Below are positions 2,502 to 56,056 of a stretch of DNA of 64,000 nucleotides, one piece after another. Made by a program: the position numbers and the translations under genes. A model generated the notes under the pieces. It ran no database searches, was not told where the DNA came from, and saw nothing but the letters and a program-made list of their open reading frames with translations. Origin of the DNA: Halichondria panicea (Eukaryota; Porifera; Demospongiae; Suberitida; Halichondriidae); contig NC_087377.1 in assembly GCF_963675165.1 (NCBI RefSeq), positions 11,270,632 through 11,334,631 of the forward strand, written 5' to 3'. Every line of letters starts with the position of its first letter. The first letter of the stretch is position 1.

Positions 2502-4242
2502 ATGCAAATGGATATCATGAAGAGATTGGGAGCTGTGGTCTTTTACTGGTTGGCATTAACTCTTCGGATAAATGGTATTTATCATATAGATTTTTCAGCC
2601 AGTTTACTTATACTCTTCCTTAGCAACCTTCCTGGTGAGTGATGAGAGGCCATGTCCAATGGAGAGAGTCACGTTCACCTGTACTGCTCCTGGAGCTCTC
2701 CTTAGATGGTCACCATCTGATATTCTCGATGTTGACCCTGAGTTCACTCCCCTCAACACACCAGTACCAGATTACAATGTGACACTGACTGCTTTTGATG
2801 ATACTGGTTTAACATCCACCTTCTCAAGAGTAGCAAAGAACGGAGTTATGGTGACTTGTCTGGACCCATCCAATGACGTGATTGGATCAGCGACCATTCA
2901 GTTGGCTGGTGAGGAACTCTATCACTCAAGTATAATGTATAATTATACTCCCAACATGCACACGCAGTTCCCCCTTCCTCCCCTCAAGGATTCAGTCACT
3001 CTGTTGAGAGCAGGTCAGTCATCAATGAAGTCAGTGTGACTGTTGGTTGGGACCCTCCTACTGAGACTGGTGGTAGAGATGACCTCACCTACACAGTGAA
3101 CGTCTCACCTCCGGCCCAGCTCTCTGCTACTGTTCTCACATCCACCTCTGTCACGGTGACTGCTCAATACAATGTGGACTACACTGTCAGTGTTGTGGCT
3201 ACCAACTGTGCTGGGAACAGTACAACTGCTGAGTATAACTTTAGGATTGGTGAGTTGACAAGCTAGATTATTCAGGCACCAGCCAACTCGTGAGTTATTA
3301 TCCTATGTTTGCATGTGTATTTTAATTCTCATGCAATTTTCAGCTCCTCCAATGAGGTGCACAGTTCCACTATCCCCACCATGGAATGGCACTATCAGTG
3401 ATCATTCAGTACCAGCTCCTCTAGGTACACAAGTGACCTTCCAGTGTGATGATGGGCTGTTCCCTGAGGGGATAATGACTGCCACCTGTATAGCTACAGA
3501 AGAGTCACAGTGGGACAAGAACCCGGGGGAGATTTTCTGTAGAAATGAATCCAGTAAGCTATATCTAATTTGTATATAGTCATCTATACACCATTCCTTG
3601 CAGTTTTCTGTGTCCTGCCTGCCCCTCCACTCAATGGAACATTACTCAACACCAACTCTCTGAACACTAACCTAATAGAGGGCTCAGTTCTTACCTTCCA
3701 ATGTGATCCTGAGTTCTCACCGGTGTACACAGTGACTGTCACTTGCAACAACTCTGGTCTCTGGGACCCTGACCCGGCTCTATTGGAGTGTATATATATT
3801 TGTACGTATGCACGAGTAGTATAAACAAGCTGGCACATGCATGCACAATGATAAAAAGCCCTCTTATCATTATACGGTACATTTACAATACTTTTTTTGT
3901 GTTATGCCCCCCCACTGTTGAAACTCCCTACTCAGTCTGATATTCTTGTTCTTATTTGGCTCCCCTGTCACACGCACAGTTCCGCCACCCACCCTATCCA
4001 CTGAAGAAGCTATTTCTGTTAGCGTGGTTGTCACGGTAGTTGTTTTCATAGTCATTGGATTGCTCGCTGGACTCCTAGTGACACACATTTGCTCTCGTAA
4101 GAAGGCAGTATACTATCCAGCAACTGAAGGACAAGCTAACGTAAGACCCACTGTACCACCTGGTCCTGTATATGAGGAGGTGTTACCCAAAGAGGAAATT
4201 GAACTGAACACTAATCAGGCATATGGACCAGTTGGATTGTGA
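2502..4242 (+). CDS. receptor A: Ig-like/FN3/2xCCP type I membrane protein
   Basis: Putative cell-surface receptor, modelled as six exons: 2502-2574, 2624-2908, 2968-3249, 3344-3553, 3604-3801 and 3980-4242 (436 aa). All joins are phase 1 and the frame closes exactly. Exon 1 is a signal peptide (hydrophobic run AVVFYWLALTL). Exon 2 is an Ig-like domain with paired Cys around VTFTCTAPG and VMVTCLDP. Exon 3 is FN3 (SVTVGWDPPTETGG). Exons 4 and 5 are CCP/sushi modules with PxNGT, FQCD and W-xx-NPGE/DPxP-C signatures. Exon 6 has one membrane helix (about 20 residues of V/I/L/G) and a basic stop SRKK. The tail carries PVYEEV and NQAYGPV tyrosine motifs. It is closest to receptor B, which has the same exon order. 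The acceptor of exon 6 and donor of exon 5 were chosen to keep phase 1 and the last CCP cysteine. Ligand and partner are unknown. Confidence 0.85.
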
Positions 4243-5494
4243 AACTTACATGCAAGACTATAGTGTGCAAACATTGTATAGCCACAAATATTAAAACAAA
4301 GGCTTATAGAAATAACCTTGTAATAGCAATTTTAGGTATCATAATCAAGTATATTATAGTTATAGTAGTTTGAGGGTGTATTGGCCTTGATTCAAGTTGT
4401 ACCCGGGGGCAGTACAAACTGCACATGGTTCACACTTGCACTAAGGATCCATGGTGTACGTACAGGTTTTGTGTGTGTTTGTGTGAGTGTGCATGTGATG
4501 TGTGTGTTGTAACAAAGCTTTAACAAAGAAGTACAACAGAAACCGCAAGTAAGGTTAAAAAATACAATGATTATTTTATTAACTAAAGTTACTTGTGTTT
4601 GGAATGATGCAGCTGAGCACCATGCATGCATGCAGGGATGAATTTCAGCCGGGCTTAATTGGAAGCAGCTTTTTGAGGTGGATATCGAAACATTTGGCCA
4701 GGCAATGGAGGTTATCTGTTGGGATTTCTGTGTCGAGCTAGCGCTGGTAATCGCTGATTTTTCATTATTCCTCTTCCTTAATTCCTCCATACAAAATGGT
4801 CCGCCTGAGTTAGTATGAAGAATAATCTATTGTAAAACTAGTGCGTTGATACTGATTAGATAGAGTAAAAGTGGCCCAGCTTCTGCTGGCATATTCATGA
4901 CTTGATCATGAGGTTCTTTATAAAGGCATAGAAGAGTATTTTCTTTTTTGGCACTAGAGGCTAGTGCTACCTCAGGTATATAGCCTCGGTCCCGGGCCGA
5001 TTTTTTTAAAATATACTAGCTAGAGGCAATGAGGTTACCTCAGGTAGTACTATCAGTACAACTACAAACTGGTACACCAAACAGGTTGAAAAGAATAATA
5101 GGAAAATAAAAGCATAATTTACCAAGCCTATACGGTATGCTACGGTAGTGGTGCAGTGCTTTTTTTCGTCAGCTGTCCCATTCTCAATCTCAGGTATGTT
5201 ATACGCACTGGCTAGGTATCATAGGCATAGGCCTCCATTCTCTTATTAAAACAAAGTAGATTTTCAGTATTAAAATGGCTCACACATTCTGCATGTACAT
5301 GTATATATATAAGGGATTGGCTGGGAATGACGTCGAGAAATACCAGCAAGAAAGTACATGTGAATGACGTTGAAACGGATTGGAGTTATGCTCTCGTCTG
5401 ATTTCTTGTTCCCACGTTTTTTGGTGTAGTCTGGTCAAACTGTATAGTCTTTGCTTTAGCATTTAGGTATTTTGCGCTATTGTTTATGCCACAT
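4243..5494. other. intergenic; nothing recognised
   Basis: 3' flank of receptor A and upstream flank of duplication block 1. It contains a GT-rich microsatellite-like run near 4466-4508 and AT-rich sequence. A reverse-strand open frame near 4392-4790 has biased, low-complexity composition and no splice partners, so I do not call it a gene. Confidence 0.4.
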
Positions 5495-5913: not shown

Positions 5914-6774
5914 TTAATTTGCTTCTGCTAGGGTAACCCCAACTTCCTCTGCAGTAGGCCTTTGTTCAGGGTGGTCATTGAGGCATTTAATCACAAGAGG
6001 ATGCAGGCTGTGATTCTTTCCCATCTTATGGATAGCTGGATTTCGTCGCATGAGCTCTATCTTTCCTTCTGACATTTCCTCTTTTGTTGGTGGTGGAATT
6101 GCGTTAATCCCAGGACGGTCACCACAATGAAAGTATAGAGAATAAGGACACCAAATGAAAAGATGTCAAGCTTTGTGTTGTAGTCAAGGTGCTCAGCTTG
6201 ATATTCAGGAGGCATGTACAAAAGACTTCCTGGAGTATCGGATAGCGTCGATATTGATGGGTCTGCATATTTTACGACACTAAAACTTCCGATCTTGGCT
6301 GTGAGACCGTCCTCAGTCAGTAGAATGCTGCTAGGACAAAGGTCGCAATGGATTAGTGGAGGGGTCAGTGAGTGGAGGTAGTGATGACCTTTTGACACGT
6401 CATGCAGAATGTGGATTCTATCGGAGGTACTTGTATCGGGATTTTTCTCGATAAAGTTGGCCAAGTTTGAATTAAGCCTCTCCATTATCAGACTGATGTT
6501 GTTCTTGCTATAGCCATATTGGACTCCAATTAACAAATCCGACCACGTTGGGGTGGTTCAAACTACTTAGAATGCGACACTCTTCGAGGAAACTCAGGCA
6601 ATAGTCGCCAGCTTCGAGCAACATGTCGTAGAGCTTCTTTGCGACGCATTTCCGCCCGTTTACGGTAACTTCAAAGACTACTCCGTAGGACCCAGAGTCT
6701 ATTTGGTCCCCCTGTCCCTCCACCTGGACCACCAGAGCATCCAGATCTATCTTTGAGTTTGTTTGAGACGCCAT
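5914..6774 (-). pseudogene. TKL-like pseudokinase, copy 1, frameshifted
   Basis: Protein-kinase-fold gene beginning MASQTNSKID at 6774. The Gly-rich loop GSYGVVFEV and the Lys motif KCVAKK are present. Compared with copy 2 (17384-18393), four extra bases near 6530 shift the frame after HPNVVGFV, and two extra bases near 6120 shift it again after FGVLILYTFI. The catalytic core is also degenerate. HRD is HCD, the metal-binding Asn position reads CPSS before ILL, and the DFG position reads IGSFS. The family fold is therefore kept without normal phosphotransfer residues. The end at 5914 is the first stop after NDHPEQRPTAEEVG in the original frame. A broken copy of an already catalytically impaired gene. 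Confidence 0.8.
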
Positions 6775-9266: not shown

Positions 9267-10933
9267 CTATAATGGTCCATACGCCTGGTTAGTGTTCAGT
9301 TCAATCTCCTCTTTAGGTGACACCTCCTCATACACAGGACCAATTAGTACAGTAGATCTTGCATTAGCTTGTCCTTCAGCTGCTGGAAAATGCAGTGCTT
9401 TCTTATGGTAGCGAAGGTGCATCACTAAGAGTCCAGCGAGGAATCCAATGATCGTGAACAGAGCTGCCGTGACAACCACACTAACGGAAACAGCAATACC
9501 AAGATCAGTACCAGTGAATAGAGTTGGGGATTGAGCTGCATAATAGGTAGGTGCATGGCCGCTCAATTTGATTACAGTATAGGTAATGTATATTTACTTG
9601 CCTCTACAGACAATCTCTCCTGGGTTCCTGTCCCACTCTCCTGTAGTGAGACAGGTGGAAGTCAATATCCCCTCGGGAAACAGTCCATTATCACACTGAA
9701 AGGACCCTTGTGCACCAGGAATAGCTGGTAAAAAATGATCACTGGTAATGGTACCATTCTGTGGTGGGTCCAGTTGAGCAGTGCATCTCATTAGAAGAGC
9801 TAAAATTATTAGCATGTTATAATTATACCAACAGCTGATTCGTAAAACTCACTAGTTGTTGGAGGAGCCTGGGTTTGTTGCAATTTACCACACTCGATAG
9901 TTTCAGAGTTTGGGTTCCACAATAGTGTACCGTGATCACATGTCACCATCATAACAGAAGACACATACCCAGCATCACACTGGATTGTTACTGTGGATCC
10001 TGGCAATCTGCTAAAGACTGATCCAAACACTCCATTCATGGGGTTGGTCAACACAGGACAGCTGCCTGCGAAGGAATCGGAAATGTGCATATGTGTTGAT
10101 TTTTTAATGCTGCCAGCTTACCAATCATAAAGCTGTACTCAGCAGTTGTACTGTTCCCAGCACAGTTGATAGCCATAACACTGACAGTGTAGTTCACATT
10201 GTATAGAACTGTCACAGTGACAGAGGTGGATGTGAGGACAGTAGCAGAGAGCTGGGCCGGAGGTGAGATGGTCACTGTGTAGGTGAGGTCATCTCTACCA
10301 CCAGTCTCAGTAGGAGAGTCCCAACCAACAGTCACACTGACTTCATCTGCTGAACTGCTCTCAACAGAGTGACTAACTCTTTGAGGAGGAGAAGGGGGAA
10401 CTGTGTATAGGAGATAGTGTATGCATGTGTTATTCACAGTGAGTAACACATAATTTGACTCACCAGCCAACTGAATGGTCGTTGATCCTATCTCATCATT
10501 CGGTGGGTCCAGACAAGTCACTCTGACTCCATTCTCGGCTGTTCTTGAGAGGGTGGATGTTAAACTAGTATTGTTGAAAGCAGTCAGTGTCACAGTGTAA
10601 CCTTGTTGCATCAGAGCCATATTGAGTTCATTTATCCCACGATCAACAATGATATTTACAGAAAGATCAGATAGGGACCAACTTATGAGAGTTCCAGGAG
10701 AAGTACAGGTGAACGTAACTATCTCCATTGGACATGGCCTCTCATCATTCACCAGGAAGGTTGCTGACAAAGAATGACTCACATTCAATTCTATATATAC
10801 GATTAGTCTAATATCTATCATGCCTTTGATCTCCGTAGAGTTGTGTCTTACCAGTGCTAAAACTTGTCAGGAAACAAGACAGAAAAAACTTCAAGAAGAT
10901 AAAGTCACATACAGGTAGATCTGCATGTAGCAT
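9267..10933 (-). CDS. receptor B: Ig-like/FN3/2xCCP type I membrane protein
   Basis: Paralogue of receptor A on the opposite strand, modelled as complement of 10852-10933, 10464-10763, 10122-10400, 9853-10065, 9602-9799 and 9267-9535 (446 aa, frame closes). Exon 1 gives a signal peptide (FIFLKFFLSCFLTSF). Exon 2 is Ig-like (VNDERPCPMEIVTFTC). Exon 3 is FN3 (VSVTVGWDSPTETGG). Exons 4 and 5 are CCP modules; the second is nearly that of A (NGTI, FQCDNGLFPEGI, WDRNPGEIVC). Exon 6 has a helix (AVSVSVVVTAALFTIIGFL), a basic stop and the tail boxes PVYEEV and NQAYGPL. All introns are phase 1. The donor of exon 5 is AG|GCAAGT, a GC-AG intron chosen because the nearby GT would break phase and run into a stop. 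Confidence 0.85.
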
Positions 10934-18393: not shown

Positions 18394-19060
18394 ATACGGG
18401 AAAAAAGTCCTGAATGTTGTGCTATTAGAATAATTGTCTGCAGCAGTTAGTCTTATATATAGATCACCATGCATGCACCTTATGGTTGGTCATGTGAATC
18501 ACATGATCAGAGCTTTCATATATAACATTCCTATGAAATTCGTGGCAGGTTACTATGCACGTGGCCCGGCTTTTACCCACAGAAACCATACTTTTATAAT
18601 CACGTACATGCATGCATGTACATATAGTTATAGATAATTATTGTAAAATATCCATGTCGACCACTATAGCAAAAATCAAAAGTATCTCTGACATGCATAC
18701 ATGAATATAATCATTATCATAAATTATGCCGATAATAAGTATAATTATACATTATATATTTTTAAGTCACAATGCTAAAACGACACATTTATATAGCTAC
18801 TGCATACATCTGCATGCATGCAATGCTATATATGCATAATGGGTTACGGACTTACAGACTATAAATGTCTTCGCTGATCAGATGTTAATATAATAGTTTT
18901 GCCACTGATAAATTATAGTTAAACATGTTACATTGAACAAAATAGGAAATACTGCTTCTGGAACGGTAAAAATTGTAGAGTTATTTGTATATACATGTAT
19001 GTATGCAGCTACCAGCTTGAGAGTAATTTCATAACTATACTGGGTCCAGGCTGCACGACG
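18394..19060. other. intergenic between pseudokinase 2 and receptor H
   Basis: AT-rich DNA with many ATGCATGC words. No gene is seen. Most of it has no counterpart in duplication block 1. Confidence 0.4.
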
Positions 19061-22000
19061 CTAGAGCACCTCTGCAATGTTAAAATGGGATTTGTACGTA
19101 TAAATATAGAAATCTAACACAGTAACATGTATAATTATACATACCAATATTGACTTCCGGAGGTTCTTCTTTGTTCTCAGTAGTACGAACTGCTTCAGTT
19201 ACCGGTGGTAGTTTTTTAATTTCCTCTCTACCATAACTGCACAATGACAGATGTATAATAATTATTAAGTTTTAATCACAAACAAAATAAAAATGCAACG
19301 TACGACAGTTTTGATTGGGTATGTAGCTCTACTTATGACTTGAATTTATGAAATTACCGTTGCTCTTCCATTTGAACAGAATACTTTTTCTCGACATCTA
19401 CAGAGGAGAATATTAAGTGTTTAAATTATAAGCATGATAAACACAAAGAAAAACATTTGCTATAGTTAATTGTGCTGATACTGCACGTGGAATAAGTGTG
19501 TATTTATTACTTACTTTGATATTTCAGAACGAGTATCACTACCACCACAACTATCACTACAATCAGCACTGGTATGGCAATTATCACCCCCGCAACAATG
19601 CCGACAACACACCGATCATTACAGCCGCCCTCAGCCACTGGAATGACGGGCTCCTCGGTATTAGGTAGAGTGGAAACAGCAGCTGGGGAAAGAGGACCTT
19701 GTTACAAGATACAACACTTTCAATCTTTAGCGTGTATGATTATTATACTTATATATTGCATGTATAATCCATCAGATGGAAACTGTGTTTAGTACTGGTA
19801 CAATACATGCATATATCTGCATGTGCATCTGTATAGCACAATACTGCATATAATTATAACGCTCAAGCAATCTATGGCTATATACAAGTAAATTAGATTC
19901 TATACAAAGTACTGATTGAAACTTTTACTTGTAAAATTTCTAGACACAGCTAGAACGACATCTACAGCTTTGTCTGCATTGAGGACAATTCTGATAGTAA
20001 AGTGGTACTGTGTGTCAGGGTTCAAGCCATTGAAAGTCACGCTGTACTGCTCAGAGTAGCCAGTGTAGTCGGCCATTATCGTTGCTGAGTCAGCAGGGTC
20101 AACAGTTGAGATGATTTGCAGCTGCTCGGGTTGGTAAGAGGTGAGGGGAAGAGTGATTGTGACAGTGTGACTGGTTTCCATTGGTTCATCCTCTTCCACT
20201 CCAGAAATGTACAGGTATGGCACTGGAATAAGAATTTCAGTCGCAAATAATTGTGTGAAGTGGTTTGGATAATTAGTTTAAAAAATATTAGACGCTAGCT
20301 AGCTAACTATCCATTTGCTTGCATGGTTTCAAATCGAAAACCGGCCATTGGTATTCACTTACCAATAAAGGTGGCTTCTGTAGTTTCCCTGCATTGATTG
20401 TCTTGAAAGGTTATAAAGACATCAATAACATCTCCTCCAGGTAGCTCAACCTCAACGTCAAAGTACTTTCCAGTTACACTCTTCACAGGAGAGATCTTTC
20501 CGTTATATTTGGTATGTCGATAGGTACGAGTTGGAACAAAAGGCTCGGAAACATTCTGAAGAATTATTATTATGCCTTTTGTATAGATTTGATTAGATGG
20601 AAATGGTGAATTGTGAAAATCAGGTGGCTTAGAACAAAGATAATAACATGCTGTGTTGAGATTATTATAACAGACAAACTGCTCACAGGTATAATGGCAT
20701 ATTATTATTATACATTCGTGGGTGCCAAATTTGGCGTGTGCAAGGGTCTCACCTCTAGTGTGGTGCGAAGAAACACTGTGCCATTCACCAAGGAGAAGAT
20801 TGAAGTAAAAATGGGGCCCTCAAGCACTGCGTGATGAGTCAAAAGCAACTTACTGTAATCGCATGCATGCATTATTAGATTTGTGGTACCAGCTACATCG
20901 ATACAATTGAATATTTATATCTGTATATACTTGTTGTAATACAATCTGGAAGCCCCAAGGGGAATACCTGACAAATCAGCATCAAAGCTCATTGGAGCAC
21001 TCTCTGCGCCCTGAACCAGATCAGGCGTAGTGATGGATGCGACGAAGGTATAGTTGAAACGACAGACGTTCAAGCCACTCACATACACTATCGGCAAAAC
21101 ATTCGAGTTAGTAGAATTTGACCACCCATCTGCTATGGTATCCACTCGGTAGCTACCAACACAGTGATCATCGGGTACAGACAGGGTTAATTTGACCGAT
21201 GACTGGGATAGTTGTTTTATGGAGTCAATAGTCGGAGTAGGAACACCTAGACAAAATGTGTGTGCATGTGTGCATGTGACTGTGTAAGCACGAACTACCA
21301 ACTGCAAACTACCAACTGCGAACTGTTAAGTACTATCAACTATCAACTGTGAACTAGAGCAACTACATGAACTGTTAAGTATCAACTATCAACTATGAGT
21401 AGCACTCAGGGCCATGCACACAAGCAGCAACACCTATAATTACACTGCATTAGCTACATTAAGTTGTAAACGATGTATCAATCGAAAAATTGCATATGAA
21501 ACAGTAACAGGTATATTCCTGTAAAATGTTAAGTATCAACTATCAACTATGAGTAGCACTCAGGGCCATGCACACAAGCAGCAACACCTATAATTACACT
21601 GCATTAGCTACATTAAGTTGTAAACGATGTATCAATCGAAAAATTGCATACGAAACAGTAACAGGTATATTCCTGTAAAACGTTAAGTATAATAAAGCAA
21701 ACAGACTCACTTAGAATTCTAATGGTGACATTTCCAATAAGTTTCGATGTGGAGGAAGAACCTGCTCTGCATTCCACCATCACACCATCCAGACTAGCAT
21801 TGGGAATAATCTCAGCTGTGGAGTTTAGGGTGGGACCATTCTTATCACTGACGTTAGTGATGAAGAAATCACCACATGCCTCTGTGGTACTACTTGGGGG
21901 ATCATGTGAGACAAGACATTGTGGGGTTCCAGTGACCTCCCAGCGAGTTACACCCGCACTCGTGTAGTTGTGAGAACAGACGAGAGATAATCGATCTCTT

Positions 22001-22752
22001 GAGCAGACGATGACTTCTCCATTAATAGTATCGATGCTAGTGCTCACTGCTTCTGTAGTGACAAACAAAAGAATTTGATACTTTTGAGGAGAAATTAGTT
22101 GCACCATTAACACTTAATGATTTGTGAACACAAGATATGCATTTGAATAATGTATATAGCACCGTCCAAGATGAAAATTTAAACTACAAAATAATGGTTA
22201 CTGTTATTATTATAACGTGCAACTCTATCAGTGGTCAATTATATACTGCTAGCCTACTGTACATGGCTAGCAGAACACTGAATGTTAAATAATTAAATTG
22301 ATAATTAGTAAAATTGAACGCCTTGCAGGTGTGGCAGAGGAGACAAAACTTCAATCACCAACCAGTAACCTCCCATGACAATATATCACTCCAAAAAGTA
22401 ACAATTAATGACCAAAAAACAGGCGCTAAACGTTTCCTGGCTACTGTATATTAAATATAATGTTGCTATCCGTAAAACTGATCATGACGCATACAATTAT
22501 GTTGCTATCCGTAACTTCTTTGATAAAAATATACCTGACCATAAAACAATATAACACAATAGACTCCAAAATACACAATTCTAGCAATTCAGCACTCACC
22601 TGAGCCTCTAAGCAGGTGAATCACCACAAATATGAAAACCTATTAAAGTGAAGAAAAAAGAGAAGATCACACTGGTTGCATTGAAAGATAGCTACAGAAG
22701 CATTGCTATATAGCTTAGGCTGTCTGCTATTTTTTAGTACCTTATTCAGCAT
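19061..22752 (-). CDS. receptor H: Ig-like/FN3 type I membrane protein
   Basis: Eleven exons on the reverse strand: 22741-22752, 22600-22639, 21711-22052, 20968-21246, 20753-20826, 20363-20555, 19929-20222, 19515-19682, 19358-19397, 19145-19236 and 19061-19071 (514 aa, frame closes). The signal peptide MLNK/VFIFVVIHLL is split by a phase-0 intron, as in receptor G. Then come an Ig-like exon (VCSRDRLSLVCSHNYTS, WEVTG), an FN3 exon of 279 bp, a 74-bp plus 193-bp pair forming one FN3-like domain with a phase-0 internal intron, and a further beta-sandwich exon (HTVTITLPLTSY, YHFTIRIVLN). A membrane helix rich in Val/Ile follows. The tail has EKKYSVQMEEQ and RYGREEIKK. The exon lengths 279 and 74 are identical to those of G, so G and H form a subfamily without CCP modules. 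It diverges from receptor C across 22753-24132. The last 11-bp exon rests only on splice and phase fit. Confidence 0.8.
21376..21688. repeat. tandem duplication, about 156 bp x 2, intronic
   Basis: Two nearly identical direct copies (starting AAGTATCAACTATCAACTATG) lie back to back in intron 3 of receptor H; only a few bases differ. A shorter ACTATCAACTGTGAACTA-like array precedes them at about 21290-21376. Confidence 0.8.
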
Positions 22753-24132: not shown

Positions 24133-25553
24133 ATGATAATACACTGGGAGCTACTGTTAGGCCTTTGCCTGACAATCAAAGGTGAGATTACTGAACCAGC
24201 AGATATATAGTTTAAAAGATAATCATCAATCAATTCACCATAGTGCACTGCACACTCGTCACGAACTATGAAGGAAGAGCTTGTCCTGCTGGAGTGAATA
24301 CTCTTACTTGTGAAGGTCGCACAGACGATGTTGTTTCATGGACTACTGCAGCTCCTACTGGAACAGAGCAAATACGAATGGATGCATTTCTACCCATTGG
24401 CATCCTAAATGAAACAGAAACAGTATCTGGCCTTCTTGGCAATATGTTCTTCTCTGGAGAAATTCTTGTCAATTTCATTCCAATTAATCAATCGAGCTTG
24501 TACGCCTTCAATACAACGTACTCCATCAATACAACACAGCCAGTTACACTGACATGTAGCAATTCAACAACTGACCTTGGAACAATAGAAATTGAGTTAG
24601 CGAGTAAGTCATTTCCTTATAATTTCAGTTGAGTATGTATCTCTATTTCAATATAGTGGCTCCTTCACCACCACAAATGTTTATACAACTTGGTGAACAA
24701 GGTTTGATCAACACTGTTGATGTCACCATTGGTTGGGACGCTCCTACTGAGACTGGTGGTAGAGATGACCTCACCTACACAGTGAACGTCTCACCTCCGG
24801 CCCAGCTCTCTGCTACTGTCCTCACATCCACCTCTGCCACTGTGACTGCTCAATACAATGTGGACTACACTGTCAGTGTTATGGCTACCAACTGTGCTGG
24901 AGAGAGTGTACCTAGAATGTACAGATTTAAAATTGGTAAGCTGCATAGTAAATGAAATTAGAGATTGGTTTATTTCAGAGTACTGGTATGTACAGATTCC
25001 TGTGCTATTCCAACCGCCCCTTCAAATGGTTCCATTGGACCAGTAACAAGCAGGACTATTGGATCTAGAATGACTTTCCAATGTGACTCAGGATTCATTC
25101 CCACTCAACAAATGATTGCCACATGCTTAGACACGCTGGTATGGAGTCCAGACCCTTCAACGTTTGCTTGTAGAGCACAAACTCTTGTTGCTGGTGAGTT
25201 ATAAGTGAATCAACATCTCGTTGATAACTCACATTTTCTGTATAGATGCATTTTCCATTTCGATGTTTACTGGATTAGACGTGACTCTGAGTGTGGTAGT
25301 GTCGTCGGCAATCGCAATTCTGATTGGACTAGCAATTGGAGTGTGCGGCACTTATCTACTCATGCGTAAAAGAATCGTCAGTCCAGACAATAAAGAAGTT
25401 CCTGTTACTCTTGTTACAATAGAAAGTCCATTACACGAAACCCCACCCACATTGCCTCCACCACGACAAGGGAGTCCGTTGTACGAGGAGGTTTACACAG
25501 AATCTGAATTGGAGGTCAATTACGCTTACATGAGGGCTTCTGAGTTTCAGTAA
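24133..25553 (+). CDS. receptor C: Ig-like/FN3/CCP type I membrane protein
   Basis: Five exons: 24133-24181, 24244-24603, 24657-24935, 24996-25193 and 25246-25553 (397 aa, all joins phase 1). Signal peptide WELLLGLCLTI. Exon 2 is a diverged Ig-like domain (ACPAGVNTLTCEG ... PVTLTCSNST). Exon 3 is FN3, almost identical at nucleotide level to the FN3 exons of A and B over TETGGRDDLTYTVNVSPP and onwards. Exon 4 is a single CCP (CAIPTAPSNGSI, MTFQCDSGF, WSPDPSTFAC). Exon 5 has a helix (TLSVVVSSAIAILIGLAIGV), MRKR stop-transfer, a Pro-rich juxtamembrane segment with TPPTLPPPRQGSP, then LYEEVYTESELEVNYAYM. The tail keeps the YEEV box but ends in NYAYM instead of NxAYGP. The PPLP-type segment could bind SH3 or WW domains (inference). 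Confidence 0.85.
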
Positions 25554-37408: not shown

Positions 37409-39896
37409 ATGGTGCACTTCAGAAGTAATCATTGTCTTGTAAGTGTAGCTGTGTCATTGCTGAGCCAAGGTAAAGATTTATATAGTCCTAGGTTTATGAA
37501 TGTTTAGTGCATGATTAGTGTCAATGTTTTTTCCTGCAGGCTACCCCAGGACTAGTGCTGCCAGTAGAGAGAACCACTGGACTGGGTTGTATACCAGAGG
37601 GCAGGACTGTCAGCTATGAGTGCACTGCTACTGATCCAGTAGATCCTCCTGTGGCTAGTACGGTTTGGCAGGGAACTGCCCTCAACTGTCCTTCAGCAAG
37701 TGATACAATAAACAATCGGATCACTCTATCTCATAATCAATTTCAGTCTGGAGGCACTGCTGGTGTTTGTGGTGGCTTGTCTGCAATGAGTACTGGATTT
37801 AGTAGAAATGAATACACCTCAAGATTGATTCTAACAGCCTCTAATGAGTTGAATGGAATGACTGTTATGTGTAGTTTGAGTATTTTTATAGTTGGAAATG
37901 ACACCGTAATAGTTGGAGGTGAGTAACATAATTATGACTATCTGACTGTACCATAACCTTTGCCATTCCAAACAGCTTCTTCCCTTCCTCCTCTAAGTGT
38001 CATGGTTGACGTCACTTCTTCTTTGTCCTTCACATTCAGTTGGATTCCACCATCTGATACCAGCAATGTGGGAGGATACCTGTTTAACGTGACTGGAGAG
38101 GATTGTGGTTGTGTAAGTATGAAAACCAGTGCTGAAACTACCAATGTCCTGTGTTCTGGTTGGACGGTCAGTGGTCAGACCTGCTCCTTTGAAGTGAGGG
38201 CCATATCAGAAGACTGTGGGTTCACCAGTGATTCTGTTGCACTAGCCATCTCACTGCGCGGTGAGTTCATACACACAGCTATATACATGCATGCACTATA
38301 TAAAGAGGTATCGTTCTCGTAGTACCATCCAGTCCAACTGGGCTACAAGTGATGGCAATGTACAATCAGTATAGAAGCACAGCGTACATTGAAGTGGACT
38401 TTATGGGTGTGGTGAGTTGAATCAGTGACATTCTCATACTATAACTATAATTATGACCTTGAGTTTTCCTCATAAATTTCGATTTACTGTCACGTGTAAT
38501 CTATAGCGGGTACATATATACTTGGTGCCTAAAACTTTTCTGGCAAATCTATGTGATGCCGGTTCCAAATTAACTTCGATTACTTCATTCACCATTGCAT
38601 GCTTACCTGCTATAATGTAATCCACGAAAAGCATATAGTTTACTTGGTTTGTATGGCATAAGAGCTATGAAACTGTTAACTTTGACACATCCTGTCTAGA
38701 ATTGATTACTGTGACCAACGGTGGTGTGTGAAAGTGCTATAACTGGCTTATCGCATAATGTGATAAGGCCTTTTGTTAGTACGGTACTATAATATAGATT
38801 TTCCCTTCTTGTAAGTAAATATACTGCTCACATTCTAAGCAGTCCATCCCTCTACTTGGTGCTAACCTGGACTCTACTATCAGCTACACAGTCACATTAA
38901 CAGGAACTAGAGCCACCCTTCAATTTAATGGAGTTAACTGTAACACTACCAACTACTGCACACTCAGAGTGAGTGGGTCCCAGCTTTCTCCGGCTGACCG
39001 CTATACTGTCAGTGTTGTTGCGTCTAATATCTTTGGCCAAGGAGCACCAGTTACCTTTGTAAATCCAGGTTAGTAGTAAACTATTATACTATTCTGAGCA
39101 TTCAGTGTCATGTTTATTGTAGCTATTGTTGACAGCTTAGATAATGAAACAACAACAATGACGAGTGTATAATTGTATAAAACTTGCTATCAATAGTTGG
39201 AGTGTGTCTGATGGAATGTGACCCTGAAGTCCTGGGAAAAAGCCCTTCATCTCAAAGAAGTACTGGCTCAGTGCATGGCTGTTCTCAATGGAGTGGTAAC
39301 CTACAGTGGTGTGGTTCTCGGCTCTGTTGCTACCTTAACATGTGACACTGAGTATAGTATTACTAATGAGTATAATAGGACCTGTATGAGTGACGGTCAC
39401 TGGAGTAAAGGAACCCTGAGATGCGAGCAAGAAACTACAGCAGGTGAATGCTATACGGCTATACAAACTGTGACCTGTTGATTGTGCTTATACTAAAGAA
39501 TGCTAGCTATACAAACTGTGACCTATTGATTGTGCATGCATGCCTATACTAACTATACAAACTGTGAGATTGTGCCTATAATAACTAAAGATAACATTTA
39601 CTTATTAAATGGATGTGAATGTTCTTGCAACTATAGAAAACAATCTTTCTTTTGGAGTATCTATTGCTGTTGCTGTTATTCTGACGTTCCTGTTGACCCT
39701 GGCTCTAGGAATCTCCATTGGTGTTTTCATTGTGTTGGCAGTGAACAAGTGGAGGAGGTCTGAAAATATAACTCTGCAAACTGAAACTGAAACTGAAATG
39801 ATACCACCTCCTGTGATATACGAAGAACCTAATGACATTAAACCTGACCCCTTCACTCAGGAGAACGTTGCTTATGAGCTAGTAAAACCCAATTGA
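37409..39896 (+). CDS. receptor D: Ig-like/2xFN3/CCP type I membrane protein
   Basis: Seven exons: 37409-37469, 37550-37918, 37976-38260, 38323-38411, 38843-39068, 39258-39443 and 39637-39896 (491 aa). Exon 1 carries a weakly hydrophobic signal (CLVSVAVSLLSQ). Exon 2 is Ig-like (GCIPEGRTVSYECTA, TVMCSLSI). Exon 3 is FN3 (SFTFSWIPPSDTSNVGGYLF). Exons 4 and 5 form a second FN3 with an internal phase-0 intron. Exon 6 is a CCP (LNGVVTYSG, ATLTCDTEYS, HWSKGTLRC). Exon 7 has a helix (FGVSIAVAVILTFLLTLALG) and a tail with VIYEEPNDIK and VAYELVKPN at the extreme C-terminus. The exon 2 acceptor was taken at CCCCAG|GA and the exon 6 acceptor at CTCAAAG|AA because only these keep phase 1; both are less canonical than nearby AGs. 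An AATAAA lies at 40061, about 165 bp after the stop. Relics of D are scattered at 27380, 45230 and 61422. Confidence 0.75.
38502..38614. mobile_element. short MITE relative in intron of D
   Basis: Ends TATAGCGGGTA / TACCTGCTATA, about 113 bp. It appears to be a shortened member of the 205-bp family. The call rests only on the termini. Confidence 0.45.
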
Positions 39897-40157
39897 CTAT
39901 ATTATTATTTTAGTGAACGAAGTGGTTTTATAATTATATGGTAGATCAGATCATGACACTTTTGGTAATTAGTTTGTTCTCTGCAAAATAGGTTCTTATA
40001 CTAGTAAGAAATGATTTTATAGCAACTGCTTGTTTAAATAGCTGCTATAACAATAATCAAAATAAAGTGCATGGTGACTGTTGACAATAGAAGTGAATGC
40101 TATATCGTATACCATATTGAATCAACAAACAATTAAGTACTATTTCAGTTAAATTAA

Positions 40158-42407
40158 TTAAGCTGTATATTTGAGTTCTCCATAAGCCTGGTTTGACTGC
40201 AACTCAATGTTTTTCTTTGCCATCTGGGGTGGATAATCATTGTTGTACACAAATCTCTTTTAAGTTAATTTTCTCACTTGTCCATAAGCTTCATTAGACA
40301 CCACTTGAATGTCTTGTGTTCTTTGTGCTGTTACTAGACCGACTTCCTCGTATACTGGACCAGCTGCGACTTTTGGAACTTTATTGTCTGACAGTTGGGT
40401 GCTACCTATTGATAAAGAGTCAGTTTTTAATAACATGAAACAACCTTTTGCCCTCACTTTTTGTTTTCTTTACTAAGACTATGAACACCACAACAACCAG
40501 TACCACCACCACAAACAGACTGCCAAGAGAACCACCAGCTATAGCCCCAACGTTATCAGCCAGTAGAGCTAAGACGGAAATCAACAACACATGTATAATC
40601 ACCACAATGATACAATGCTATTATACACAGCTTAGTATATACGCAATTGTGCATGTAGTATATTGACTTTAAAAAAGGCTATTAAAAGTACTCACGGACA
40701 GTTGTTGGGGACACACACATGATGGTGCTAGGCTCAAGGTTCCAGACTCCAGCATTAGTGCAAATGATGGTGTTGGATCCAGTCAGTGAGAGTCCATTGT
40801 CACACTGGTAAGTCAGCACTGTTCCCTCCAACACTGTCTCATTCAACCCCTCATAGTTTACTATAGTTCCGTTGGAGGGCTGCTCAGGTAGAGAGCAGTT
40901 GACTGTGAAATTCAACATATAGGGTATACTAAAATTATGCTATAGCACCGTTGACTGTATTATATTATAGCTACACAACAGAAAAAACTAACAGACATTA
41001 AAATAGTATGTTTAGTACCTGGCCTTTCCCTGCACACCAAGCTCCCAGGATTCTCCACCCACTCTCCCCTACCCCCCACATCAGTGCATATGCTGGTCCT
41101 CACATCAAGGGGAAACAGTCTCTCGTCACAGCGATATATAACTTCTGAACCCAATGAGAAAGGTGGTGGGACACCACTGATGTCCACACAACCTCCAGAC
41201 GGTGTGGCAGGAGAACTACAGGTGACTGGGGGATCTAATGCATGCATGAGATCAACATTCCTTTTAGAGAGTTAAGTGCCCATGTACACTGTAAAAACAC
41301 TCTTTTTTTATGAAAAGTGTGCTCAGCGTATATGCGACATTTTAGCCGGTGTGCTCAGCACACTTCAGTGTATGATACCTGTAACTGGACTGTTGCAGTC
41401 AACGGTCCCAGGGTCAGGAGACCATCCATTAATGCCACAGGTTGAGGTTCTCACTTCATTGTCTCCACTACAAGTGAAGGAGAGCATGGATCCACCAATA
41501 GTGACAGGAGGTGTGTTGATGATGGTCACACCAGCAGCAGTAGACGGTGTGGGGCACACCACTGTATTACAAGAAGGAGCTATAGTATATCAATGTTGTA
41601 AGAATTTAAAGAGTACTAATTGAAGTAGCTTACTTAGATCAACAATTAAACTTTCATTCATTCCAACACAGTTGACAGCTCTGACGGTCACATTGTATAA
41701 AGTGTTGTAGGAGATGGTTATCTGTGTGGAGGTGGTCTCCACAGTGACTGGTGACCCAGAGAGAGGTGTTGGGGAGATGGTGAGAACATAGCTGACAGAC
41801 ACACCACCAGTAGAGGAGGGGGAGTCCCACTCCAGAGTGATATTAGAGGAACTGGGTTGGTTTAGAGTGAATGATACTCTTGGGTTGAGTAGAGGGGAGG
41901 GTGGATCTGTGCATGAGTGTATTGATCCATTGTTTGACAGACAAAGAACTCACCAGCCACAGTGATAGTGAGAGGACCTTCTCGTGAGCTCTCTCCATCA
42001 CACAACACCATAGTACCTTCTACAATGGAGGCCTCAGACAGTGAGACGAGATTGGCAGTAACCATTCCTCCACTAGAGTCAGTGAAAACACTACGGAATG
42101 CTGGATTACCTTGTGTGACATCAGTGTTGCTGGTGTCCACAGTTATGGTAAATACTTGCAGTTGTGGAGAAGTGACCATCCATCGTATGAGACTACCAGG
42201 CAGAGTGCAGGTGAAGGTGACAGTGTCATCAGGACAGGCCACAGTGGAGGTGGATGTCAGTGTGGCTGAACAATGATAGCTCTATAGAGTCAAAGTTTTA
42301 GACTATCTATAGCCAAACAATAGCAAACAAATAATTATATAAAAGTCCTTACCTGCAACACTAGTAGCAAACAACTGAATAGTGATAATAACTGCTTTTA
42401 CTTGCAT
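40158..42407 (-). CDS. receptor E: Ig-like/FN3/3xCCP type I membrane protein, two-exon tail
   Basis: Nine exons on the reverse strand: 42353-42407, 41954-42265, 41634-41906, 41379-41561, 41019-41234, 40696-40902, 40458-40568, 40278-40405 and 40158-40223 (516 aa, frame closes). Signal peptide KAVIITIQLFATSV. Ig-like exon (ACPDDTVTFTCTLPG, TMVLCDG). FN3 (NITLEWDSPSSTGGVSVSY). Three CCP exons (AGVTIINTPPV/LSFTCSGDNE; TCSSPATPSGG/VIYRCDE; NCSLPEQPSNGTI/LTYQCDNG). The membrane exon has GGSLGSLFVVVVLVVVVFI and KKTK. The tail is split: the first exon has AAGPVYEEVGL and SNEAYGQ, and the second has KKNIELQSNQAYGELKYTA. The second tail exon is placed by a clean AG acceptor, a phase-0 join and an identical layout in pseudogene F. 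Its NQAYG box matches the single-exon tails of A and B. E ends tail-to-tail with D. Confidence 0.85.
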
Positions 42408-42654
42408 CGCAGGATTGCAGGAGGCCTGATCTAGATCTAGGACTCATAGAAAATAGCATTTAATTAAAAAGAACACACCTCTTTTCAGACTAATTTTAGT
42501 AATAAAGGAAGCCAAGAAAACCACATGCACCATACAAATTAGTGTAAGATCAGAAAAATAATATTATTTTGCATACTTCCACCCACACATTCAGTAGGAG
42601 ACCATCACAAAACTCAAACACAACAGTGTTTGCACAAAATACACCCTCAACTAT

Positions 42655-42840
42655 AAATAATGAAAAGCACCCTGGCTGCTGATGGCTTGGCTCCTCAGGG
42701 GCAGTGCAGTTGACCTTGTAGGACAGCACGCAGTTAATAAAGTAACAGCACTATGTATAGTACTGAGATCAGGCTCTCGTACTCCATTTTGTCCATCTGT
42801 TGTGCTAGTGGCAGTCAGAATACCCATGGGAATGATTGCT
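42655..42840 (-). pseudogene. relic of a CCP exon pair
   Basis: 42679-42720 matches the CCP start of F/E (GGCTCCTCAGGG, CAGTGCAGTTGAC), and 42768-42830 matches F near 43700-43755 (CACTCTATTTTGTCCATCT-like, GGCAGTCAGAATACCC). An internal duplication scrap downstream of F's tail exons' flank. Confidence 0.5.
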
Positions 42841-42887
42841 ATCTTATACCATATTGAATCAACAAACAAGTAGTTCAGTTCAATATA

Positions 42888-44955
42888 TTAAGCTGTATAT
42901 TTGAGTTCTCCATAAGCCTGGTTTGACTGCAACTCAATGTTTTGCTTTGCCATCTAGGGTAGAATAATCATTATACACAAAGCTCTTTTACGTTCATTTT
43001 CTCACTTGTTCATAAGCTTCATTGGACTCCACTTGAATGTCTTGTGTTCGTTGCGCTGTTGCTAGACCGACTTCCTTGTATACTGGACCAGCTGCGACTT
43101 TTGGAACTTTATCGTCTGATAGTTGGCTGCTACCTATTGAACCAAGTCATAAAGAGTCAGTTTAACATGAAACAACCTTTCCTTCACTTTTTGTTGATAA
43201 TTACTAAGACTATGAACACCACAACAACCAGTACCACCACAAACAGACTGCCAGGAGAACCACCAGCTATAGCCCCAGCGTTATTAGCCAGTAGAAAAAT
43301 CAACGACACATGTATAATTATCATACATCTCACCACAATGCTTACACAGCTTATGCAAATGTATGTATTAAAAAAAGAGGCTAATTATAAGTACTTACGG
43401 ACAGTTTTTGGGGACACACACATGATGGTGCTATAGGCTCAAGGTTCCAGACTCCAGCATTAGTGCAAATGATGGAGTTGGGTCCTATCAATGAGAGTCC
43501 ATTGTCACACTGGTAAGTCAGCACTATTCCCTCCAACACTGTCTCATTCAACCTCTCATAGTTCACTATAGTGCCGTTGGATGGCTCCTCAGGGACAGTG
43601 CAGTTGACTGTGTAGATATAGCATACGCATGCAGTTAATAATATTCGAGCATGCACTATACCTGGCAAAGCCCTGCACACCACAGCACTTGGATCAGGAT
43701 CCCACACTCTATTTTGTCCATCTCTTGTGCAAATTGCAGTCAGAATACCCGTGGGAAAGTGTTCATTATTGCACTGATATGACCTGTGACCCTTCTATGT
43801 AAGACTGACCACTAGTGTTCATAATGCCCATAGAGGGGGACCCGGGAACTGGGCAGGTCACTGGGGATTCTGTAAGAGATATACAGCTTGATCTATATGC
43901 AAACTTATCAAACTTACTCATTGTTGGACACAAGAACTCCTCAGGGTCAGGATTCCATCGTCCATCATTGCCACAGATAGAGGTTACTATCTGATTATCT
44001 TCAGAACAAGTGAAGGCAAGTGTGGAGTCCACGGTAGGTACACTGGGTATCTGGACAATAACCACACCACTAGCAGCAGAGAGGAAGGAGGGACAGGAAA
44101 CTGAGTATTATAGAGTGAAGTATTAGTTGTGGGGACAGTAATTTAACATTTGCTTGCCTATGGAAGGTATAGTGAACCGCATTGAGGCATCTCTCATTCC
44201 AGCACAGTTAACAGCTCTGACAGTCACGTCGTAGGGTGTGTTAAAAGAGACAATGATCTGTGCGGAGGTGGTCTCCACGGTGATTTGTGACCCAGAGAGA
44301 GGTATTGGGGAGATGACGAGGACATACCTGACAAACACACCACCAGTAGAAGAGAGAGGGTCCCACTCCAGAGAGATATTAGAGGAACTGGGTAATTGGT
44401 TTTGAGTGGAGGACATTGTTGGGTTCAAAGATCTGTGTAAAATGTGTGTCTATATTATTATATCCTAGCTCTAACCACAATAAACTTTACTTACCTGCCA
44501 CAACGATGGGTATTGGACCTTCTAGACAGTTCACCATAGCTCCACCAGCGCTGTCACCATGGTGAGGGTGGTGAGTGTCGATATGATCAAGACTCCATTG
44601 TGTCCGGAGTAATCAGCCCGGAACATGACCCCATCAGAGCCAATCTCCCTTGTTACAATACTGTTACTCACTAATCCAGATGCACTGGCCACATCCATAT
44701 AATAATTATAGTACCAGGTAGAGTGCAGGTGAAGGTTACAGTGTCATTAGGACAAGTCATGCACGTTGCATGGGACTTGGTGTCAGTGTACAAGTGGCTA
44801 TATAAAATTCGATCTATTAGAAGCAATGATAATTATACATATCTATACCATATCTGGGCAGAAACAATCTATTATATACCTGCACTGAAAGAAGAGAGTA
44901 ATACGCCACACACTAGAACTGCCCTCAAGCGATCCAAGCAGATTTCCTGTGTCAT
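42888..44955 (-). pseudogene. receptor F: decayed paralogue of E
   Basis: Same exon order as E. The signal peptide exon is intact (44880-44955, DRLRAVLVCGVLLSSFSA). The Ig-like exon starts well (TCPNDTVTFTCTLPG) but then has tandem stops near 44690 and two frame changes. The FN3 exon (44160-44430) and first CCP (NGTI-less, FTCSEDNQ, WNPDPEEFLC) are readable. The second CCP breaks after EGSQV near 43790. The third CCP has a 2-bp insertion near its last cysteine (about 43430). The membrane exon has lost the CTTAG acceptor used in E and has one extra base near 43198. Tail exons are intact, with PVYKEV, SNEAYEQ and NQAYGELKYTA; the last exon is 42888-42953. An alternative acceptor four bases further in would offset the membrane-exon shift, but the other breaks remain. 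Confidence 0.8.
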
Positions 44956-45229
44956 GTCTAGAAGTCTAGATCTAGTTGCATTGAAATAATTATAGCCCTT
45001 TGTTTTATGTAGGACAGGACTTCCTATATATAGTGTCATATAATTATATATTTCCTGTGAGGGTTAGCTAATAGTGTTGCACTTCTATAATGATGCTTAC
45101 CTAATATCTAATTTATGACAGTTCACCCAGGTTGCATGTGTGGACAGAGTCATTAACACAGCTTAACATTTTTATCAATGGGTTACACGAAAAAACATTG
45201 TTAAAACACAATGATGCATTTCAGATGTA

Positions 45230-53557: not shown

Positions 53558-53719
53558 TGTACAGAGGATTTCAGGTTGGTTGGCAGAAGTTAAAAGTTGA
53601 AGTGCACTCAACCATGACCACACACACTGTATGTTTCTCCCTACTAATGAAATTGGTGGTCATGGTTGACTGCACTTCAACTTTTAACTTCTGCCAACCA
53701 ACGTGAAATCCTCTGTACA
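53558..53719. repeat. hairpin, 64-bp arms, 34-bp loop
   Basis: 53558-53621 pairs with 53656-53719 at 62 of 64 positions (arm starts TGTACAGAGGATTTCA). It lies two bases beyond the stop of receptor G, so it would fall in that gene's 3' UTR. Could be a very small foldback transposon or a precursor-like RNA hairpin. Confidence 0.85.
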
Positions 53720-53721
53720 TC

Positions 53722-56056
53722 TCACTCTAGACTAATAATGATAGTGTGCCCTATAGAGTATGTGGGCTCTAACCATGCAACCTCAATGTTTACTACACAA
53801 GCACCACATTCACATGCAGCCCACACAAGGTAAAGTACCTGCAAGAAATTGTCTCCCATGTGCACATTGCTAAGCCTGGATCCCCTATATTTCAAATCTT
53901 GAGGCACAGCATAATCTGATTCTTCCTTAATGACACATGGTCTGTACAAATATAAATCAGGTGATAAGCTGATATAATTATAGTACAAAAGGAAAGACTT
54001 ACGTTTCCTGATGAGCAATTTCTTTGAAATATAGATCGTTGGTTCTACCTACAATGATATAAAAATTATGTAAAAAGAGATTGTTGGGGGAAACATTTTT
54101 CTCATGGTATATATAGTGTAAAGGGAGAGAGATATCAAAATGATAGTTTAGTTTATTGCTTTGGGGAGATAGTAGTGTGACCACCTACGTCGAGTGATGA
54201 CGATTACGATTATGATAATGATTATGGAAAAAAACAGAACAGCAATGCCACCAATAGACCCTGCTACAACTGCAACTGGGAATGTTGATTCTCCTCCACC
54301 ACCACCTGCATGCATGGAGAAAATTGGTGAATTCGATCGAATTTTAGCAAGTTGAACGTACCTCCCAATGTTGTCAAACTGAATTCTCCAGTGAAAGGAG
54401 GAACGACATCATTCGATTGGTCGCTGGTCAAAACAATTCTAATGGTGTAGGTGTAGAGGACTCCGGCAGTGAGGTCAGTGAAAGTCACCATGATTTGGTT
54501 GGTTGTGGAGGGGAAAGGGAGGGTGATTGTATCCGAGTGAGGGGGAGAGAGGATGGAGACAATAAGCAGGTCACTGGGAGGGTAACCAGTGAAGGGGAGC
54601 GACAAACAGAGTGTGTAGTTAGTTTCTGATGGTGTGACTTCTTGTGCGGAAATCACTGTAGCTGGAACTGAAACACAGCACCTCAATAGTTACGTTGTGT
54701 ATGAACAACAAAACAACCAGTCTTACCAGTCACAGCAGTGGAATTGATTGCAGAGCAGTCCTTGTTCCTGAACATCACACACACTGTGCAAGTATCTCCA
54801 GGAGATTGGTCTGAGAAATCGATTACAACTGAACTCCCATTAAATGATGTGGTAGGAACACAATCCTCTCCACTCGATATGTATCCAAACATTTGAATGA
54901 GTGCAATTTCAATCGAAATATCCTGAAGACAAAGTTACAATTTTAGCGAGATAATAATGCAGAGGCATGCACAAATCATACCTGAACTATTACTTTGAGC
55001 TTCAAAACTTCCTTTTGGAATATGAAGGAGGTGGATACTGCTGGAGTCACCAAGTCTAAATATGACACCCACAATTAATGGCATTAAGATAAGTATGCTG
55101 TCATTACAAACATACTTGGATTGATCACAGTGATATTTAAGGTGTCTGAAGATAACGGTCCATTGAGTGTGAGTGGTTTCACAGTCACTGTCTGAGTCTC
55201 ACAGTAAGGGAGGCTCTCTCCAGCTAATGATAGAGATGTGTTTGTGGTATTGTACACTGTTTCATTCAGGGTGATGCTGTAGCCAGTGACACATCTCTGG
55301 TAAGGTTGGTCCAATGGGTCCCAGTCCAGAACAGACCCTAGAGCATCAGTTCTCAGATTTGCTATCCAGGAAGTTACAGACGACATATTTAGATCTGTAA
55401 AAAGTAAACATTTTGTGATTGTGAGTATGATGATCTTGTTGATTATTTACCTATCACATTAAGTGTGGTGTTGCCAACTTGTGGAGACAAAGTACCACCA
55501 CCAGCAAAGCATTCAACCAGAGTACCGTCCAGTGCCTCAGTCACAGGTATATGAACGATGGAACTCACTGTGGAGCCAGTATTGTCACTGATCATGATGA
55601 TGGTGAACGGACTCAGATCACAAGGCTGTTCTGAGCCTGAATCAAAATCGTGGCTCACTATAACATTGCAGGATATAGTTCCACTAATTGCCCATCGAGT
55701 TTGTGCACCCTTTATATGACTACAAGTTAGACAGACTAACTCTCCAGGACAAACTGTTAACATAGTTTCTTCTTCAGTAATGTTTGATAGAAATGCTGAA
55801 TTTCCATATACAGCATCTAGACAATAGCACACATGGACTCATTATATGCATTGCATTGTCTTATTTCTCTGTAAATCTCTATAAATATTAATTGTAGATC
55901 TATAGTCTAGCAGTTTGTCTATCTGCTCACCCAGTTGATTTGCTAGCAGTGTCCATGAAACCAGGACCAACAGGATAATCTATACGTATATAGGCAGTAA
56001 AAACTATACAGGTACCACGTTTTCTCTTGTCTTACCTTGCAACTTGGTATACTCAT
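53722..56056 (-). CDS. receptor G: Ig-like/FN3 type I membrane protein
   Basis: Ten exons on the reverse strand: 56036-56056, 55931-55979, 55451-55816, 55116-55394, 54982-55055, 54727-54922, 54362-54667, 54185-54305, 54003-54044 and 53722-53941 (557 aa). The signal peptide MSIPSCK/IILLVLVSWTLL is split by a phase-0 intron, as in H. The Ig-like exon has VCPGELVCLTCSH and TRWAISGT. FN3 exon (VLDWDPLDQPYQRCVTGYSI), then a 74+196 bp split FN3-like domain, then a beta-sandwich exon (YTLCLSLPFTGYPPSD, YTYTIRIVLTSDQ). After a Gly-rich stalk comes the helix (GSIGGIAVLFFSIIIIIIVI) and TRRR. The tail has NDLYFKEIAHQ and EESDYAVPQDLKY. The last 38 codons (after DNFLQ) may be intron read-through, because a good GT donor sits there and no convincing terminal exon was found. 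Confidence 0.75.

What the first reader, a model, noticed from the sequence alone, without database searches (positions are those of the whole stretch)
2502..56056. A receptor family with conserved ITAM-like cytoplasmic tails
Seven intact genes and one pseudogene share signal peptide, Ig-like, FN3 (and in six also CCP) exons, one helix and a short tyrosine-bearing tail. In A and B the tail has PVYEEV, 13 residues, then YGPV/YGPL. E and F have PVY(E/K)EV followed by two AYxxQ/AYGEL boxes. C has YEEV then YAYM; D has YEEP then YELV. Ectodomains vary in domain number while tail boxes persist, as expected for a signalling receptor family. Spacing is longer than a canonical ITAM, so binding to SH2 proteins is inference. 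This is my best candidate for an undescribed system in the window.
Basis: partly seen in the sequence, partly recalled or inferred. Interest (0 to 1): 0.8.

Follow-up and report, generated by a model that had tools for sequence, protein, structure and literature searches.

The report
Giant receptor cluster with constant tyrosine tails
The window holds part of a very large family of cell-surface receptors, mostly on one chromosome, whose outer parts vary while a short tyrosine-bearing inner tail is kept almost unchanged, as expected if many different sensors feed one signalling route.

Summary
Genes A, B, C and E splice to full open frames. D has a frameshift, F is broken in two exons, and two relatives without the boxes (G and H) are also present, so "seven intact genes and one pseudogene" is not confirmed.

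The system is far larger than the window. Two capped searches give 185 A-type tail or membrane-segment loci, all on contig C1 between 11.25 and 14.93 Mb. D-type tails (57 matches) lie only on C1; E-type tails give 38 of 40 matches there. Box pN/pS is 0.09-0.28 depending on the sample, against 0.85-1.10 in the adjoining 24 codons of the same exon, with pS no lower in the box. The second tyrosine shows 0 amino-acid and 9 synonymous steps. Ectodomain types recur with different tails.

The boxes are not canonical ITAMs. A SHARK-like SH2-ANK-SH2 kinase and a SHP2-like phosphatase are encoded. Best reading: a phosphotyrosine-signalling recognition-receptor superlocus. Ligand and function are inferred; the taxon was not verified.

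The parts
2508..4242 (+). Gene A: SP 2508-2574, Ig-like 2624-2908, FN3 2968-3249, CCP 3344-3553, CCP 3604-3801, TM/tail 3980-4242
   Evidence: splices to a complete ORF; Pfam Sushi, fn3 below cut-off
4162..4233 (+). A tail box GPVYEEV..NQAYGPV
9267..10933 (-). Gene B: SP 10933-10852, Ig-like 10763-10464, FN3 10400-10122, CCP 10065-9853, CCP 9799-9599, TM/tail 9535-9267
   Evidence: splices to a complete ORF
9270..9341 (-). B tail box GPVYEEV..NQAYGPL
24133..25553 (+). Gene C: SP, Ig-like, FN3, CCP, TM/tail (LYEEV, then NYAYM)
   Evidence: splices to a complete ORF; its tail matches nowhere else in the genome at the search's sensitivity
25449..25550 (+). C tail with boxes
37409..39896 (+). Gene D: SP, Ig-like, FN3-like exons, CCP (out of frame), TM/tail (IYEEP, then NVAYELV)
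   Evidence: tail family of 57 matches
39804..39893 (+). D tail with boxes
40158..42407 (-). Gene E: SP 42407-42353, Ig-like 42265-41954, FN3 41906-41634, CCP 41579-41379, CCP 41234-41019, CCP 40902-40696, TM 40568-40458, tail exons 40405-40278 and 40223-40158
   Evidence: splices to a complete ORF
40263..40382 (-). E tail boxes 1 and 2 (PVYEEV, NEAYGQ)
40161..40223 (-). E tail box 3 (NQAYGEL)
42888..44955 (-). F: copy of E with Ig and second CCP exons broken; tail boxes PVYKEV, NEAYEQ, NQAYGEL still readable
54148..56056 (-). G: Ig-like and FN3-like exons and TM, no YEEV or NxAY box seen
19510..22113 (-). H: Ig-like, FN3-like exons and TM, no box seen; a kinase ORF lies further downstream on the same strand
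   Evidence: kinase

Best explanation
The window is part of a receptor superlocus on contig C1. Type I membrane proteins built from an Ig-like domain, FN3 and CCP modules carry one of a few cytoplasmic tail types, each with two to four tyrosine boxes: [VIL]YEE[VP] near the middle and NxAY[G] near the end. The tail is a common output module. Ligand binding by the variable ectodomain would cluster receptors, a Src-type kinase would phosphorylate the boxes, and SH2 proteins (a SHARK/Syk-type tandem-SH2 kinase, or SHP2, Crk-like or PTB proteins according to tail type) would carry the signal to an engulfment, rejection or tolerance response. Shown: the gene array, exon modules, selection on the A-type tail block, ectodomain/tail recombination, and presence of the candidate readers in the genome. 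Inferred: surface expression, phosphorylation, partner identity, ligand and biological role.
For: The A-type tail box has 254 candidates and 150 scored, all of them on C1 at 11.25-14.93 Mb; the adjoining TM-juxtamembrane segment has 231 candidates and 150 scored, all on C1; their union is 185 loci. 115 of 150 TM-juxtamembrane matches have a listed box match next to them; of the other 35, 30 carry a readable box, one of them with a stop inside, and 5 do not. Box pN/pS 0.088 against 1.10 in the adjoining 24 codons (52 tails); 0.277 against 0.85 in the 29 divergent tails; 0.157 against 1.04 over 81; bootstrap ranges 0.12-0.20 and 0.95-1.14 (80 distinct tails). pS in the box is not lower than beside it, so homogenisation alone does not explain it. 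Ig loops have pN/pS 0.8-1.17 against 0.2-0.35 in most framework windows (17 sequences). Ectodomain swaps: L054 and L055 join A-type Ig-FN3-CCP3 to E-type tails; L025 joins an E-like ectodomain to an A-type tail; 20 of 31 matches to E's last CCP exon are followed within 700 bp by a listed A-type tail or TM match. Readers: SH2-ANK-SH2-kinase on C9 whose N-SH2 and kinase pieces match ZAP-70/SYK among solved structures; SH2-SH2-PTP on C3; 71 SH2 and 9 PTB matches.
Against: No RNA, protein or polymorphism data. Tails were largely collected by similarity, so conservation is partly ascertained; the fairest sample (29 tails) gives 0.28, not 0.09. The E-type box shows no purifying signal (0.95) in 9 tails. 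The whole Ig domain has pN/pS 0.59 and only 3 of 103 pairs exceed 1, so strong positive selection is not shown. Box spacing and +3 residues do not match canonical ITAMs. Many members look broken. SH2 genes exist in animals generally, so their presence is weak evidence of a link.
Confidence: 0.62

Rival explanations
1. The boxes are endocytic or sorting signals (YxxPhi read by AP-2), and the family are scavenger or uptake receptors rather than phosphotyrosine signallers.
For: Box 2 fits YxxPhi in the tails read (YGPV/L/I, YGHV, YGQM, YGEL) and box 1 fits in A, C and E. The +3 position of box 2 is the one that varies, among hydrophobics.
Against: D-type box 1 is YEEP or YEDP, without a hydrophobic +3. 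Residues at +1, +2, -1 and -3 (E, E, A, N), which AP-2 is not recalled to read, are as fixed as the tyrosines.
Confidence: 0.2
2. They are adhesion proteins; the tail anchors the cytoskeleton through PTB or SH2 adaptors and there is no immune-type recognition.
For: Ig, FN3 and CCP modules are common in adhesion proteins; a 2025 review ties sponge IgSF mainly to adhesion (PMC11999971, passages seen). Box 2 resembles NxxY, and PTB domains are encoded.
Against: Copy number, tandem array, many broken copies, loop-focused variation and ectodomain/tail exchange are more typical of recognition families.
Confidence: 0.12
3. The tail looks constant only because the copies are recent or homogenised by gene conversion.
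For: Some blocks are recent duplicates (D-E-F block at 93% over 7.6 kb about 30 kb away); several tails are identical.
Against: Synonymous divergence in the box equals or exceeds that of the adjoining codons, which change freely at the protein level.
Confidence: 0.05

Closest known systems
Hydractinia/Podocoryna allorecognition complex (Alr genes)
   Same: Clustered, duplicated Ig-type membrane proteins on one chromosome; the 41-gene family is cited in PMC11999971 (passages) and 22 clustered ALRs are reported in Podocoryna (PMC13119343, passages).
   Different: Here FN3 and CCP modules, far more copies and near-constant short tails. Huene 2022 was not held, so Alr tails were not compared.
ITAM/ITIM receptors of vertebrates, including paired receptors
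   Same: Two tyrosine boxes in a short tail; similar ectodomains with different tails.
   Different: Spacing and +3 residues do not meet the ITAM consensus (recalled); no homology tested.
Drosophila Draper with Shark, Ced-6 and Corkscrew
   Same: A tail combining a box read by a tandem-SH2 kinase and an NPXY box (PMC9008705, passages); SHARK-like and SHP2-like genes are present here.
   Different: Draper's ectodomain is EGF-type (recalled); box 2 here is NxAY without the proline.
Oyster CgIgIT2
   Same: Invertebrate Ig receptor with a tyrosine activation motif (PMC11999971, passages).
   Different: Described there with five Ig domains and a classic ITAM.
Sponge SRCR and other immune-receptor expansions
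   Same: Large receptor repertoires with FN3, Sushi and Ig combinations (PMC6208332, PMC8242945, passages).
   Different: Those passages concern other receptor classes and do not describe these tails.

Membership tests
Canonical ITAM (recalled consensus YxxL/I, 6-12 residues, YxxL/I) | L or I at +3 of both tyrosines | tested here: not met
   Box 1 +3 is V in 52 of 52 and 28 of 29 A-type tails, P in most D-type tails read; box 2 +3 is V, L, I or F
Canonical ITAM | 6-12 residues between the two YxxPhi boxes | tested here: not met
   Y-Y distance 17 in 73 of 79 A-type tails measured (2 of 81 skipped), i.e. 13 residues between boxes; 18 in most D, 22 in most E. C has 11 by reading of its sequence
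Canonical ITAM | Dual phosphorylation and binding of a tandem-SH2 kinase | not testable with these tools
   A SHARK-like kinase is encoded; no binding data
NPxY/PTB-binding tail (recalled) | N at -3 and P at -2 of tyrosine | tested here: not met
   N at -3 is kept but -2 is Q, E, V, L, A or Y
Ig superfamily (exon 2 domain) | Ig beta-sandwich fold with the cysteine pair | tested here: inconclusive
   No Pfam Ig match; invariant C, W, C in 18 sequences; AF2 pLDDT 78; Foldseek best E 0.011; VIA-align Z up to 9.1 to Ig domains. Fold likely, sequence membership not shown
SHARK kinase (C9:5252500-5260000) | SH2, ankyrin repeats, SH2 and Syk-type kinase in order on one strand | tested here: met
   Pfam on the separate exons; SYK/ZAP-70 dominate the solved-structure matches of the kinase piece; transcript continuity not shown
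Alr family | Sequence or structural homology to Alr proteins | not tested
   no Alr sequence was at hand

The most novel reading that the evidence does not exclude
This is a histocompatibility-type superlocus of an early-branching animal: much of C1 from about 8.6 to 17.7 Mb holds hundreds of recognition receptors that exchange ectodomains between a few tail types, giving paired receptors with different outputs (Src/SHARK-type YEEV tails, Crk-type YEEP tails, three-box tails), and it governs self/non-self discrimination.
Probability: 0.27. Interest if true: 0.93.

Novelty: new variant of a known kind. Interest (0 to 1): 0.72.

Why it matters
A dense cluster of receptors with variable ectodomains and a constant tyrosine output gives a concrete candidate locus and a biochemical handle (two short peptides) for that question, and would place tyrosine-tail recognition receptors with ectodomain/tail exchange early in animal evolution.

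Tried and rejected
Gene conversion as the whole explanation: rejected, because pS in the box is not reduced. Canonical ITAM: rejected on +3 residue and spacing. Strong positive selection on whole ectodomain domains: not supported (pN/pS 0.52-0.59; 3 of 103 Ig, 3 of 157 FN3 and 19 of 305 CCP pairs above 1). E-type tails as a second selection test: no support. A C-type tail family: none beyond C itself. Literature searches for sponge receptors with ITAM-like tails, sponge allorecognition Ig receptors, and sponge chromosome-level clusters listed no paper that by title, abstract start or passages seen describes this tail family; the library is open-licence only, one search returned no paper, and Huene 2022 is not held. 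Dropped rows: six of 35 loci (L070, L071, L076, L077, L094, L098; L098 does carry a box); two of 81 tails in the spacing count. L041 gave no tail by my pattern. One of 32 typed positions (11694192) is a slip not found, hence 20 of 31. One search shows D and G only exon by exon.
Full report
The finding. The window is G000:C1:11270632-11334631 of a 131-Mb genome in 39 contigs.

Observation. The tails of A, B, C, D, E and F read as stated. A, B, C and E splice into complete open frames. D's CCP exon is out of frame relative to its neighbours, while the same exon reads further in one frame in L045. F has a disrupted Ig exon and a disrupted second CCP exon. G and H have Ig/FN3-like exons but no box that I could see. 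In E the second and third boxes lie on separate exons.

Domain evidence. Pfam finds Sushi in A, C and E; fn3 is over its cut-off only in E; no Ig model matches. An AlphaFold model of the exon-2 domain from 18 family sequences has pLDDT 78 and pTM 0.68. Foldseek has no match at E<=0.001, its leading matches being largely Ig domains, and VIA-align gives Z 8-9 to TCR, MuSK, PDGFR and other Ig domains. I take the Ig fold as likely.

Scale. A 24-residue tail query returned 150 scored of 254 candidates, 88-100% identical, all on C1 at 11.25-14.93 Mb. A separate TM-juxtamembrane query that excludes the box returned 150 scored of 231, all on C1. The union is 185 loci; these are loci, not genes, since a few genes have two tail exons (L037), and both lists are capped. 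The Ig exon query gave 127 matches, 126 on C1 and one on C32, some being fragments of one exon. D-type tails: 57 matches, 49 at E<=0.001, all on C1 at 8.6-12.9 Mb; some tails hold two box pairs. E-type tails: 40 matches, 28 at E<=0.001; 38 lie on C1 and 2 on C6. The C-type tail matched only itself.

Selection. In 52 A-type tails the box (24 codons) has pS 0.277 and pN 0.024 (ratio 0.088); the adjoining 24 codons have pS 0.247 and pN 0.271 (1.10); the TM segment 0.55. These tails were found through the box, so I took the 35 TM-juxtamembrane matches without a listed box match: 30 carry a box (one with a stop inside) and 5 do not. In the 29 read by pattern, Y1 is kept in 28 (one C) and Y2 in 29, and the ratios are 0.277 against 0.85. 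Over 81 tails they are 0.157 against 1.04, with bootstrap ranges 0.12-0.20 and 0.95-1.14 on 80 distinct tails. Parsimony steps (amino acid/synonymous) are 247/73 beside the box and 54/124 in it; Y1 has 1/2, Y2 0/9, and the juxtamembrane tyrosine 10/1. The steps are not independent, so the Fisher p value there is only a guide. D-type tails: 0.29 against 0.84 (10 tails picked by box); E-type: 0.95 at pS 0.078 in 9 tails, no support.

Ectodomain. Pairwise pN/pS is 0.59 (Ig), 0.55 (FN3) and 0.52 (CCP). Within the Ig exon two stretches approach or slightly pass 1 (0.79-1.17 and 0.60-0.70) while most other windows lie at 0.2-0.4 (17 sequences). This fits relaxed or mildly diversifying loops, not strong positive selection.

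Exchange of outer and inner parts. L054 and L055 have the A-type Ig-FN3-CCP-CCP-CCP ectodomain with an E-type tail. L025 has an E-like ectodomain with an A-type tail. DNA of window D-E-F matches many C1 places through E's ectodomain, but its TM/tail part only in the near copies at 11.34 and 12.90 Mb; 20 of 31 matches to E's last CCP exon are followed within 700 bp by a listed A-type tail or TM match. CCP-rich ectodomains also carry E-type tails (L056-L060).

Readers of the tails. 71 SH2 and 9 PTB matches exist. On C9, N-SH2 with ankyrin repeats, C-SH2 and a tyrosine-kinase domain follow in order on one strand; the SH2 piece matches ZAP-70 and SYK among solved structures beside ankyrin proteins, and SYK/ZAP-70 fill ranks 2-25 for the kinase piece. 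C3 holds SH2-SH2-PTP. An SH2-PH gene lies at C1:8.635 Mb near D-type tails. In flies, Shark binds Draper's activation motif and Corkscrew a Draper isoform's inhibitory motif (PMC9008705, passages). A Syk-family kinase of Amphimedon is used as outgroup in PMC9601881 (passages).

Mechanism. Shown: array, modules, conserved A-type box, exchange, candidate readers. From recalled SH2 preferences, pYEEV suits Src-type SH2 domains and pYEEP Crk-type, and two boxes could engage tandem-SH2 proteins; the fixed N at -3 suggests a PTB or other reader of box 2. These are inferences. The strongest rival is YxxPhi sorting, which fits box 2 everywhere and box 1 outside D.

Known systems. It works like Alr-type complexes and tyrosine-tail immune receptors, but membership in either was not shown, and the canonical ITAM definition is not met. 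I rate it a new variant of a known kind. The searches listed under Tried and rejected found no description of this tail family in the open library.

Noticed in passing
window 22113-17384 (-): H's Ig/FN3 exons and TM are followed on the same strand by a protein-kinase ORF (17776-18489; the ORF overlaps a 200-N gap at 17778-17977), suggesting an Ig/FN3 receptor kinase.
   Followed up: partly
window 7182-5917 (-): A TM exon nearly identical to H's (CNDRCVVGIVAGVIIAIPV) precedes another kinase ORF (6060-6557), possibly a second receptor kinase.
   Followed up: partly
window 34328-36525 (+): Coiled-coil-like ORFs followed by a kinase domain (35590-36342).
   Followed up: partly
window 37400-44960 and G000:C1:11337664-11345260: The D-E-F block has a tandem copy about 30 kb away at 93% identity and partial copies at 12.90 Mb.
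   Followed up: partly
L103 (C1:8634200-8637200): SH2 plus PH gene, DAPP1-like by eye, beside D-type tails; a second SH2 match lies near another D-type tail at C1:8.613 Mb.
   Followed up: partly
window 53560-53720: Long inverted repeat just downstream of G, like a small transposon.
   Followed up: no
window 58331-58906 and 62393-63079 (+): PHD-finger ORF and a Psq-type HTH ORF.
   Followed up: no
L036, L053, L056, L058, L105: Some tails carry extra or duplicated boxes.
   Followed up: no
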